A program made the translations under genes and the position numbers. DNA of 64,000 nucleotides from Lutibacter profundi (GTDB taxonomy: Bacteria; Bacteroidota; Bacteroidia; Flavobacteriales; Flavobacteriaceae), in assembly GCF_001543325.1 (NCBI RefSeq), contig NZ_CP013355.1, forward strand, positions 1,518,001 to 1,582,000. Direction: 5' to 3'. This document shows, piece after piece, positions 46,525-63,714 of this stretch. Position 1 is the first letter of the stretch; each line of letters begins with the position of its first letter. The notes beneath the pieces were generated by a model that searched no databases, was not told the origin of the DNA, and saw only the letters and a program-made list of their open reading frames with translations.

Positions 46525-46659
46525 AAGAGGCTGTCTGAAAAGCAATTATACTTGTCATTTTGAACAAAGTGAAAAATACCAACACCTTGATATATAAGTG
46601 TTTAATTTCAAAGAGATTCTTCATTTACATTCAGAATGACACTTTTTAGACAGCCTCTT
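46525..46659. mobile_element. MITE-like palindromic element, copy A
   Basis: A 135-bp non-coding element bounded by 18-bp terminal inverted repeats (AAGAGGCTGTCTGAAAAG at the left; CTTTTTAGACAGCCTCTT at the right, one mismatch). Inner arms TGTCATTTTGA and TCAGAATGACA extend the palindrome to a long imperfect hairpin with a central loop. It matches copy B (61425-61559) with no gaps and about five differences. No flanking direct repeat is visible at this copy. It lies between two converging genes; its right end touches the stop codon of the minus-strand gene at 46660. No transposase gene is in the window. Confidence 0.8.
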
Positions 46660-61204: not shown

Positions 61205-61405
61205 ATGTCAGTAATGAAAGTAATTGAGGTAATGGCAAGTTCTGACAAAAGTTGGGAAGATGCTACTAGAAAAGCAGTATCACATGCTGGAAAAAGTATC
61301 AATCATATTAAATCTGCATTTGTACAATCACAAAGCGTTGTTGTTAACGGTGGCAACGTTGAAGCATTCAGAGTAAATGTAAAAATTACTTTTGAAGTGA
61401 AATAA
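61205..61405 (+). CDS. Dodecin family flavin-binding protein
   Basis: A 66-residue protein with the dodecin fold: KVIEVMASSDKSWEDATRKAV with the flavin-stacking Trp, INHIKSAFV and a final FRVNVKITFEV strand. Dodecins form hollow dodecamers that store or buffer FMN and riboflavin, or CoA. The ATG at 61205 is the only reasonable start. MITE-like copy B follows 19 bases after its stop. Confidence 0.95.
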   Translation: MSVMKVIEVMASSDKSWEDATRKAVSHAGKSINHIKSAFVQSQSVVVNGGNVEAFRVNVKITFEVK

Positions 61406-61416
61406 TTTTAATTAAA

Positions 61417-61424
61417 TCTATTTT
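61417..61424 (+). repeat. Left copy of 8-bp target-site duplication
   Basis: TCTATTTT directly precedes MITE-like copy B; the identical octamer directly follows it at 61560-61567. Confidence 0.75.
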
Positions 61425-61559
61425 AAGAGGCTGTCTGAAAAGCAATTATACTTGTCATTTTGAACAAAGTGAAAAATCTCAACATATTGATATATAAGTG
61501 TTTAATTTCAAGGAGATTCTTCATTTACATTCAGAATGACACTTTTTAGACAGCCTCTT
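61425..61559. mobile_element. MITE-like palindromic element, copy B
   Basis: A 135-bp element with terminal inverted repeats AAGAGGCTGTCTGAAAAG and CTTTTTAGACAGCCTCTT (17 of 18 positions pair). Inner arms (TGTCATTTTGA; TCAGAATGACA) continue the palindrome, leaving a loop of about 30 bases around TATTGATATATAAGTG. It aligns without gaps to copy A, with about five substitutions. An exact octamer, TCTATTTT, flanks it on both sides (61417-61424 and 61560-61567), as expected for a target-site duplication. It encodes no protein and would need a transposase from elsewhere in the genome. It separates dodecin from the next gene. Confidence 0.85.
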
Positions 61560-61567
61560 TCTATTTT
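61560..61567 (+). repeat. Right copy of 8-bp target-site duplication
   Basis: TCTATTTT, identical to 61417-61424, directly after MITE-like copy B. One more matching base (A) follows on each side, so the duplication could be read as 9 bp. Confidence 0.75.
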
Positions 61568-61596: not shown

Positions 61597-63714
61597 ATGC
61601 ATCGTTTATTATTTATTATAATATTAGCTTCTTTTATTAGTTGCAAAAGTCAAATCGAAAAAAAAATGCCTGAACAATATAAGTATACCAACAATTTAAT
61701 CCATGAAACTAGCCCTTACCTACTTCAACATGCTCATAATCCTGTTAATTGGTATGCTTGGAATAATGAAACTCTTGAACTTGCTAAAAAAGAAAATAAA
61801 CTTATTATTATTTCAATAGGGTATTCCTCTTGTCACTGGTGCCATGTTATGGAGCATGAAAGCTTTGAAAATGAAGAAGTTGCTAAGGTTATGAATGAAA
61901 ATTTTATAAGTATTAAAGTAGATAGAGAAGAGCGTCCAGATATAGATCAAGTTTATATGAATGCCGTACAATTAATGACTGGCAGAGGCGGTTGGCCTTT
62001 AAATTGTATTGCTCTGCCCGATGGAAGACCTATTTGGGGAGGTACCTATTTTCCTAAAGAGAATTGGATAAATGCACTAAATCAACTAGCCGACTTGTTT
62101 AAAAATACTCCTGAAAAAGCAATAGAATATGCAGAACAACTAACAGAAGGCATTAAAAAATCAGAATTAGTTTTCTTAAAAAAAACGCATACAGAAAATA
62201 CGGTTTCAAATTTAAATTTAGCAGTAAAAACGTGGGAAGAAACTATGGATTTTGATTTAGGAGGAAGAAAAGGAGCCATAAAATTTCCAATGCCTAACAA
62301 TTATGAATTTTTATTGCGATATGCCGTTCAAGCAGAAAATAATAAAATATTAAACTATGTTAATACAACGCTAACCAATATGGCGTATGGAGGTATTAAC
62401 GACCAGGTTGGCGGAGGATTTGCTAGATACTCAACAGATGAAAAATGGCATATACCTCACTTTGAAAAAATGTTATATGATAATGGTCAGCTAGTCAGCT
62501 TATACTCAAAAGCTTTCCAAGCAACAAAAAATGAATTGTACGAAAGCACAGTTTATCATACGCTTAATTTTATTGAAAGAGAGCTTACAAGTAATGAAGG
62601 TGCTTTTTATTCTTCTTTAGATGCAGACAGTAACAATGCAAAAAACGAGTTAGAAGAAGGCGCTTACTATGTTTGGAAAAAGGAACATTTAAAAACTATT
62701 TTAGGTGATGATTTTAAATTATTTTCAGACTATTACAACATCAACAATTATGGTTTTTGGGAAAACAATAATTATGTACTTATAAGAAAAAGTAGTAATG
62801 CTGAGATTGCAAAAAAACACTCTATTTCAATTTCTAAATTAAAAGATAAAGTTACAACGTGGCAAAAATTACTTTTAAAAGAAAGAGGAAAAAGAGAAAA
62901 ACCTAGATTAGACGATAAAACACTAACTTCATGGAATGCTCTTATGTTAAAGGGCTATATAGATGCCTACACTGTTTTTAATGAAAAACATTTTTTAGAG
63001 ATTGCAGTTAAAAATGCTACATTTATTTACACCAAACAATTACAAGAAAACGGAAGTTTAAATCACAATTATAAAAATGGTAAAAGTACCATCAACGGCT
63101 ATTTAGAAGATTATGCCACTGTAATTGATGCTTATATTGCATTATATGAAATTACTTTTAATGAATTGTGGTTAAACACGGCCAAACAATTAACCGATTA
63201 TACATTTGATCATTTTTATGATGTAGAAAAGTCTATGTTTTATTTTACTTCAGATGAAGATACTAATTTAATTACTCGCAAAATGGAAATTGAGGATAAT
63301 GTAATCCCTGCTTCAAACTCTATTATGGCGAAAAATCTATTCAAACTAAGTCATTACTACTCAAACAATTACTATTTAAAAGTGAGTAAACAAATGCTAG
63401 AAAACGTTAAGGAGAATACTCAACAATATGGATCTGGATATTCAAATTGGTTACAATTACTGGCAAATTATGTTGGAAATTATTATGAAGTTGCCATCTC
63501 TGGTAAAAATGCATTTGATAAAATAGTTGAACTAAACCAGAAGTACATTCCGAATAAATTAATTGCTGGTAGCACAAAAAAAAGTAACCTCCCATTAATG
63601 GAAGGTAGATACAACGAAAATGAAACACTTATTTATATTTGTGTTGATGGAGCGTGCCAACTCCCTGTTAACAACACTAAAGAAGCTTTAAATCAATTAA
63701 AAATTAAGTTTTAA
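61597..63714 (+). CDS. YyaL/SSP411-type thioredoxin-domain lipoprotein
   Basis: A 705-residue protein with a lipoprotein-like signal (ISCK, Cys16). An N-terminal thioredoxin-like domain (DUF255; about 30-190) carries [12 protein letters not shown], Cys79 and Cys82, and the [11 protein letters not shown] strand. The rest is an (alpha/alpha)6 barrel related to N-acylglucosamine 2-epimerase and glycosidases ([28 protein letters not shown]). The family is widespread but its activity is not settled. It begins 30 bases after the right target-site duplicate of MITE-like copy B. Confidence 0.9.

What the first reader, a model, noticed from the sequence alone, without database searches (positions are those of the whole stretch)
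61417..61567. MITE-like palindrome with intact 8-bp target-site duplication
Copy B (135 bp) has 18-bp terminal inverted repeats with one mismatch, no coding capacity and an exact octamer TCTATTTT on each side. Inverted ends plus a direct repeat are the standard marks of a cut-and-paste insertion. The whole element also folds into one long hairpin, so after insertion it could act as a terminator or RNA-stabilising element between dodecin and the YyaL-type gene. I do not recognise a named family for it.
Basis: seen in the sequence. Interest (0 to 1): 0.72.

Follow-up and report, generated by a model that had tools for sequence, protein, structure and literature searches.

The report
Mobile hairpin that replaces gene terminators
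The palindrome is one of dozens of copies of a small non-coding mobile element that, judged by related species, lands on existing transcription-stop hairpins, removes them and leaves its own hairpin in their place, rather than inserting with an 8-base target duplication.

Summary
The element is real: 61425-61559, 18-bp inverted ends with one mismatch, one long hairpin (z -9.5), and one of at least 37 copies (pairwise identity 92-100%) in this 2.97-Mb genome. The conserved unit is 131 bp. Its ends match the one intact IS1182-family element found in the genome (16/16 and 14/16 bases), so it is best read as an IS1182-type MITE. The octamer is there but is not the mark of insertion: 1 of 37 copies has a direct repeat of 8 (0.14 expected from re-paired flanks); 0 of 41 similar elements elsewhere have 6 or more. 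At 12 tested copies (11 ancestral loci) genus relatives carry a terminator-like hairpin where this genome has the MITE: 71 of 91 site-genome pairs, against 118 of 1500 random windows. Both inner arms of that hairpin remain in this genome's flanks in 1 of 76 comparisons, and flanks join near the hairpin's feet. This is the duplication-free, stem-loop-replacing transposition published for IS1272, also IS1182 family. Copy B probably replaced the AAAGCGCTTTT-type hairpin seen behind the upstream gene in 5 of 11 relatives. Stem-loop replacement and IS1182 MITEs are both known; a multi-copy MITE that swaps terminators was not found in the papers searched.

The parts
61427..61557 (+). Copy B, conserved 131-bp core of the MITE (61425-61559 as first described)
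61427..61442 (+). Left IS1182-type end GAGGCTGTCTGAAAAG, 16 of 16 bases as the left end of the intact IS (my count from the printed sequences)
61542..61557 (-). Right IS1182-type end (reverse complement GAGGCTGTCTAAAAAG), 14 of 16 bases as the right end of the IS (my count)
61453..61480 (+). Left arm of the inner hairpin (TGTCATTTTGAAC...AATCTC)
   Evidence: similar arms without IS1182-type ends in genus relatives
61513..61541 (+). Right arm of the inner hairpin (GAGATTCTTC...TCAGAATGACA)
61417..61424 (+). Left octamer TCTATTTT, judged a chance match, not a target duplication
61560..61567 (+). Right octamer TCTATTTT; lies about where relatives such as G008 have the T-rich stretch behind the hairpin
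46527..46657 (+). Copy A, second MITE copy in the window; 7 of 8 relatives have a terminator-like hairpin here, several of the AAAACCACGCC...GGCGTGGTTTT type
61205..61405 (+).
61597..63714 (+).

Best explanation
Copy B is a non-autonomous element (MITE) of the IS1182 kind. An IS1182-family transposase, probably that of the one intact IS1182 copy of this genome, recognises the ~16-bp ends in trans (inferred). It targets DNA that can form a hairpin, in practice terminators behind genes. It joins the element at the feet of the target hairpin and the target stem-loop is lost, with no target duplication (replacement shown by comparison between species; chemistry and timing inferred from published IS1272 work). 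The element is itself a long hairpin with A- and T-rich shoulders, so the lost terminator is exchanged for a new, probably bidirectional one (function inferred). Here it most likely replaced a GCGCTTT-type hairpin between the dodecin and YyaL-type genes.
For: At least 37 copies, mean pairwise identity 0.968; none of the 37 other genomes of the genus gives a full-length match at E <= 0.001, 11 give partial ones (at most 22 candidates scored a genome). At 12 of 37 copies tested (11 ancestral loci) 71 of 91 site-genome pairs have a hairpin in a 130-nt window at the site, against 118 of 1500 random windows and 36 of 197 windows behind open frames of relatives of the same size. Both inner arms of the relative's hairpin are still in this genome's flanks in 1 of 76 rows. 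Junctions fall mostly at or near the hairpin feet. The first base outside the element pairs across it in 0.86 of 37 copies against 0.55 re-paired, and in 0.82 against 0.62 of 28 Flavivirga copies, as expected for remains of a target stem. Context: 22 convergent, 13 co-directional, 0 divergent of 35 callable copies; window background for gaps >=40: 6, 15, 9. Intact IS1182-family transposase, 463 bits against a cut-off of 270. Published precedent: PMC4923244, PMC5678879 (passages).
Against: 20 of 91 pairs have no such hairpin; of the 99 rows, 18 have neither hairpin nor another IS1182-end element. At copy B only 5 of 11 relatives have the hairpin; 2 carry another element with IS1182-type ends and 4 neither, some with other gene order. 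This genome also lacks a hairpin at one site without MITE (L081 about 2082-2146) where G019, G020 and G016 have one, and has fewer terminator-like hairpins per 10 kb in the stretches seen (1.41 and 0.62 against 2.67 and 2.41), so loss of a hairpin is not specific to MITE sites. S5, S6 and S8 rest on one-sided anchors, S4 nearly so. Direct repeats of 5-8 are slightly above control. Flank pairing at positions 3-12 is barely above control (4.57 against 4.25, sd 0.21). The IS shares only its ends with the MITE. A simple scan finds no terminator at copy B. Some IS1182 members are listed with 4-bp direct repeats.
Confidence: 0.8

Rival explanations
1. Canonical cut-and-paste insertion with an 8-bp target-site duplication; the other copies have lost theirs. 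A milder form: IS1182 transposition sometimes duplicates, and copy B is such a case.
For: Exact octamer at both sides of copy B; about 0.4% expected for a single given copy; direct repeats of 5-8 slightly above control. The IS1272 model of PMC5678879 has side pathways that duplicate (passages).
Against: 35 of 37 copies lack a direct repeat of 6 or more although copies differ by only 1.7% on average from their consensus; 0 of 41 elsewhere have 6 or more; orthologous sites of copy B show a hairpin or another element in 7 of 11, and no single octamer was seen.
Confidence: 0.05
2. The MITE inserts next to terminators without removing them, and the now redundant old terminators decay later.
For: This genome has fewer conventional hairpins also elsewhere, and lacks one at a site without MITE.
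Against: Joined flanks show no hairpin by my score in 12 of 12 copies although copies are young; both inner arms remain in 1 of 76 rows; flanks join at the hairpin feet, e.g. S3 and S6.
Confidence: 0.1
3. The family is spread by another machinery, such as a REP-type system acting on the inner hairpin, and the IS1182 resemblance of the ends is secondary.
For: Similar inner hairpins occur without IS1182-type ends in genus relatives.
Against: The conserved unit of the 37 copies ends at the IS1182-type ends; such ends surround different inner sequences in G037, G025 and G032, and such ends were also found in G003.
Confidence: 0.05

Closest known systems
IS1272 / TnSha1 (IS1182 family) stem-loop-replacing transposition, PMC5678879 and PMC4923244 (passages seen)
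   Same: IS1182-family transposase, short ends, hairpin and terminator targets without sequence consensus, loss of the target stem-loop, no duplication
   Different: Those are autonomous or composite elements of staphylococci; here a 131-bp non-coding element does the replacing, at least 37 copies, and is itself a hairpin that takes the place of the lost one
IS1182-derived MITEs of Methanosarcina acetivorans (ISMac2 partner), listed in PMC3852290 (passages seen)
   Same: Short non-autonomous elements with an IS1182 partner, 160 and 169 bp, 14 and 7 copies
   Different: Listed there, as I read the table row, with 4-bp and 0-bp direct repeats; the passages seen report no hairpin replacement
Inner TGTCATTCTGAA...TTCAGAATGACA repeats of the genus
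   Same: Inner part of the MITE resembles them

Membership tests
MITE | Short, non-coding, terminal inverted repeats, many copies | tested here: met
   131 bp, at least 37 copies, inverted ends, no ORF >=60 aa inside copy B
MITE | Autonomous element with the same ends in the genome | tested here: met
   One intact IS1182-family element, ends 16/16 and 14/16
MITE | Mobilised in trans by that transposase | not testable with these tools
   Needs a transposition assay
IS1182 family (as non-autonomous derivative) | Transposase of the partner belongs to the family | tested here: met
   NF033551 463 bits over cut-off 270; Pfam DDE_Tnp_1_6, DUF772 and DDE_Tnp_1
IS1272-like stem-loop replacement | Target is an inverted repeat | tested here: met
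   Hairpin in 71 of 91 site-genome pairs at 11 loci; controls 118 of 1500 and 36 of 197
IS1272-like stem-loop replacement | Target stem-loop removed at insertion | tested here: met
   Both inner arms kept in 1 of 76 rows; relatives are other species (flank identities 67-88%), so the timing of the loss is inferred
IS1272-like stem-loop replacement | No target-site duplication | tested here: met
   Direct repeats at or slightly above control in 37 copies, 0 of 41 elsewhere with >=6
Canonical cut-and-paste with 8-bp duplication | 8-bp direct repeat across copies | tested here: not met
   1 of 37 copies
Intrinsic terminator | Stable hairpin followed by a T-tract | tested here: inconclusive
   Hairpin z -9.54; at least 5 T in the 8 bases behind the end on one strand or the other in 36 of 37, on both in 18, without a control; simple scan finds none at copy B

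The most novel reading that the evidence does not exclude
A class of MITEs of Flavobacteriaceae and relatives lives by terminator exchange: it finds terminators by shape, removes them and supplies its own hairpin, so insertions are close to neutral and the same terminators are hit again and again in different species, even MITE upon MITE. Mobile elements would then be a main force in terminator turnover in these bacteria.
Probability: 0.35. Interest if true: 0.75.

Novelty: new variant of a known kind. Interest (0 to 1): 0.6.

Why it matters
It extends shape-directed, stem-loop-replacing transposition from staphylococcal IS1272 to a non-autonomous, high-copy element of another phylum, with several before/after pairs between species. 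It suggests how a MITE can multiply in a compact genome with little harm (it takes a terminator and gives one), and it offers many natural target sites for working out how an IS1182 transposase sees a hairpin. It also warns that a flanking direct repeat at one copy can mislead.

Tried and rejected
Rejected: 8-bp target duplication as a family trait. Rejected: a 4-bp palindromic duplication as a general rule, because most flanks do not repeat. Set aside: the two MITEs around the 15-kb segment in L087 as a composite transposon; their outer bases and flanks differ and look like two separate events, not tested further. Rfam (gathering scores) found only a tRNA in the window. The ends printed for other IS1182-family copies of the genus (L232-L236) do not clearly share the MITE ends. 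Pairing of flanks beyond the first base is not clearly above control. Fetched but not tested for empty sites: L082, L086, L088, L090, L091. Literature: in the held open-access library only; no paper on a terminator-replacing MITE was listed, which is no proof that none exists. The count used windows of unequal length and counted one locus twice (S8/S8b); I recounted with 130-nt windows, one row per site and genome, S8b dropped.

Full report
What was claimed and what is there. The palindrome at 61425-61559, its 18-bp ends with one mismatch and the octamers at 61417-61424 and 61560-61567 are in the sequence. The strand folds into one long hairpin, -52.4 kcal/mol, z -9.54, 0 of 200 shuffles as good. 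No ORF of 60 aa or more lies inside. A second copy is at 46525-46659.

Family in the genome. The 135 bp give 37 near-full-length matches in the 2,966,978-bp genome. That call scored 40 of 64 first-look candidates, so 37 is a lower bound; an exact scan for the inner 11-mer TCAGAATGACA gave 39 places, 34 of them in these copies and 5 elsewhere that I fetched and that showed no MITE in the stretch printed. Cores are 131 bp (36) or 130 bp (1) and run from GAGGCTGTCT to AGACAGCCTC with few mismatches; mean pairwise identity is 0.968, minimum 0.916; mean divergence from the consensus is 1.7%, copy B 0.8%, copy A 3.1%. Of 38 genomes of the genus searched, own included, 12 match at E <= 0.001; the 11 others only in part, best 2.7e-13 over query 21-124 (at most 22 candidates scored a genome). 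The amplification is therefore recent on the scale of species.

The octamer. For all 37 copies I took the best direct repeat between left and right flank over four offsets. One copy (copy B) reaches 8; re-pairing the flanks at random gives 0.138 copies with 8 or more. Observed against control: 7 and 7.04 at >=3; 5 and 3.5 at >=4; 3 and 1.5 at >=5; 2 and 0.48 at >=6; 1 and 0.22 at >=7: at control for short repeats, slightly above it for longer ones, but far from a family rule. In 41 similar elements of other genomes none has 6 or more. So the octamer is best read as a chance match in A+T-rich flanks, although for a single copy it is unusual (about 0.4%). In relatives such as G008 the right-hand octamer falls about where the T-rich stretch behind the hairpin lies.

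The partner. One intact IS1182-family transposase was found, 512 aa, match at G000:C1:2303636-2305171 (the family search gives the same one and a 42-bit remnant). NF033551 scores 463 against a cut-off of 270; Pfam gives DDE_Tnp_1_6, DUF772 and DDE_Tnp_1. The element is 1716 bp, with ends GAGGCTGTCTGAAAAG and GAGGTCGTCTAAAAAG: 16 of 16 and 14 of 16 bases as the MITE ends by my count. Two further places with the left end are what looks like a decayed element without intact ORF (L033) and an end relic near an IS4-family element (L032).

Orthologous sites. I tested 12 of the 37 copies, chosen because they lie in or near the window, in clusters that one query could cover, or, for L028, because of a long flanking palindrome. 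S8 and S8b share one ancestral locus, so there are 11 loci. Genes around the copies were located in genus relatives and stretches fetched. In relatives most sites carry a terminator-like hairpin, different from locus to locus: S1 (copy B) AAAGCGCTTTT...AAAAGCGCTTT; S2 AACATCCAAC...GTTGGATGTT; S3 AAGGTGGTTAAAAAACCACCTT; S6 AAAAAAGGAGCTTTAAAAGCTCCTTTTTT; S9 (copy A) mostly AAAACCACGCC...GGCGTGGTTTT or similar; S10 and S11 likewise. In this genome the flanking bases run into the MITE: at S6 relatives read gatttaat-hairpin-ATT and this genome gatttaat-MITE-att; at S3 the bases cctcc follow the hairpin in G036, G018 and G028 and, one T further, the MITE core here.

Counts. With one 130-nt window per site and genome (S8b dropped), 71 of 91 site-genome pairs have a hairpin of score 16 or more: S1 5 of 11, S2 4 of 4, S3 10 of 11, S4 5 of 8, S5 7 of 9, S6 7 of 8, S7 5 of 6, S8 7 of 7, S9 7 of 8, S10 9 of 11, S11 5 of 8. 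Same-size controls: 118 of 1500 random windows and 36 of 197 windows behind open frames of relatives. An earlier count with longer, unequal windows, locus rows and S8b included gave 76 of 99, with 5 more rows carrying another element with IS1182-type ends and 18 neither. In those 76, both inner arms (8-mers, up to one mismatch) are still found in this genome's flanks once (S10). Joined flanks of this genome give no hairpin by my score in 12 of 12; that score asks for three G-C pairs and a loop, so the A+T-rich 14-base inverted pair that flanks the S10 copy (L028) does not count in it. Two-sided anchors exist at S1, S2, S3, S7, S9, S10, S11 and once at S4; S5, S6 and S8 rest on one side. Shuffled segments had a 99th percentile of 16 and a maximum of 25.

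Independent signs. The first base outside the 131-bp core pairs with its opposite number in 0.86 of 37 copies, against 0.55 when flanks are re-paired (sd 0.047); in 28 Flavivirga rizhaonensis copies it is 0.82 against 0.62, p 0.003. This fits remains of a target stem. Of 35 copies with callable neighbouring ORFs 22 lie between convergent genes, 13 between co-directional ones and 0 between divergent ones; 2 were not callable. In the window, gaps of 40 or more are 6 convergent, 15 co-directional and 9 divergent. That is the placing of terminators.

Results against this reading. This genome also lacks a hairpin at one site without MITE where three relatives have one. It has fewer terminator-like hairpins in the stretches seen: 1.41 per 10 kb in the window and 0.62 in nine other loci, against 2.67 and 2.41 in two sets of relatives' loci, which are themselves chosen stretches. 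Loss of a hairpin is thus not unique to MITE sites; the coincidence of MITE junctions with the hairpin feet carries the argument. At copy B itself 4 of 11 relatives show neither hairpin nor element, some with another gene order. Flank pairing over positions 3-12 is only slightly above control (4.57 against 4.25, sd 0.21). A simple scan finds no terminator at copy B.

Wider distribution. One scan of the genome-contig collection for the right junction (CAGAATGACACTTTTTAGACAGCCTC, exact) gave 39 stretches with 41 matches; 41 of 41 have a left end with up to 3 mismatches, at lengths of 96-203 bp, 25 of 41 being 131. 28 are in F. rizhaonensis; others in F. amylovorans, F. jejuensis, Chryseobacterium, Flagellimonas, Mariniflexile, a Flavobacteriales bacterium, uncultured Flavobacteriaceae and Lutibacter, and one in a Sulfurovum MAG. 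Records of the window's own genome may be left out of that scan, as its output says. Elements with such ends around a different inner sequence occur in G037, G025 and G032, and a pair of such ends in G003. At copy B's site G036 and G016, at S3 G016, at S4 G036 and, cut by a contig end, at S9 G016 carry other sequences with IS1182-type ends, so the same terminators seem to be hit repeatedly.

Precedent. PMC4923244 (2016, passages seen) reports that TnSha1 enters hairpins at all seven sites sequenced, five confirmed as terminators by RNA-seq data, deletes part of the hairpin and makes no duplication, in line with IS1272. PMC5678879 (2017, abstract and passages) shows three new IS1272 insertions that replace inverted repeats, seven of 13 older copies with possible inverted-repeat targets and three with non-inverted-repeat ones, and proposes a cruciform-based model. 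IS1182 MITEs are listed for Methanosarcina acetivorans (PMC3852290, passages); an IS1182 member of Amoebophilus is listed with 4-bp repeats in two copies (PMC3196728, passages). So the kind is known; the variant, a multi-copy MITE that exchanges terminators, is what I did not find.

What is shown and what is inferred. Shown by comparison: at least 37 young copies, IS1182-type ends, hairpins at most sites in relatives, hairpins missing here, no family-wide duplication. Inferred: action of the IS1182 transposase in trans, recognition of the hairpin by shape, loss of the target in the same event, and terminator function of the MITE.

Noticed in passing
L087:2647-17534 (G000:C1:2846146-2861033): A segment of about 15 kb with several CXXCH-rich (multihaem cytochrome-like, by eye) proteins lies between two MITE copies; in relatives such as G036 and G019 the outer genes are adjacent with a single hairpin between them.
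   Followed up: partly
L122, L132, L134, L149, L173: Other sequences with IS1182-type ends sit at the same terminators in G036 and G016 (S1, S3, S4, S9), so sites are hit repeatedly or MITEs replace MITEs.
   Followed up: partly
L066, L068, L070, L072: The inner TGTCATTCTGAA...TTCAGAATGACA hairpin occurs without IS1182-type ends in G004 and G009; the origin of the composite MITE is open.
   Followed up: partly
L192-L230: A near relative of the MITE is amplified in Flavivirga rizhaonensis (28 matches); single or few copies occur in other genera, and one in a Sulfurovum MAG (L206), where contamination was not excluded.
   Followed up: partly
L020 and L021 (G000:C1:449804 and 443831): Two MITE copies about 6 kb apart have identical flanks (20 bases each side), which suggests a duplicated segment rather than two insertions.
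   Followed up: no
L028:1487-1645: The copy at G000:C1:2613-2743 is flanked by a 14-base A+T-rich inverted pair, as if the lower stem of its target hairpin had remained.
   Followed up: partly
L031:1331-2519: Two closely similar lipoprotein-like genes in tandem lie just upstream of the intact IS1182 copy.
   Followed up: no
G015: 21 IS1182 matches, many partial and at contig ends, suggest a high IS1182 copy number that broke this assembly.
   Followed up: no
window and L031-L087 against L044-L135: This genome has fewer conventional terminator-like hairpins per 10 kb than the relatives' stretches seen; cause unknown.
   Followed up: no
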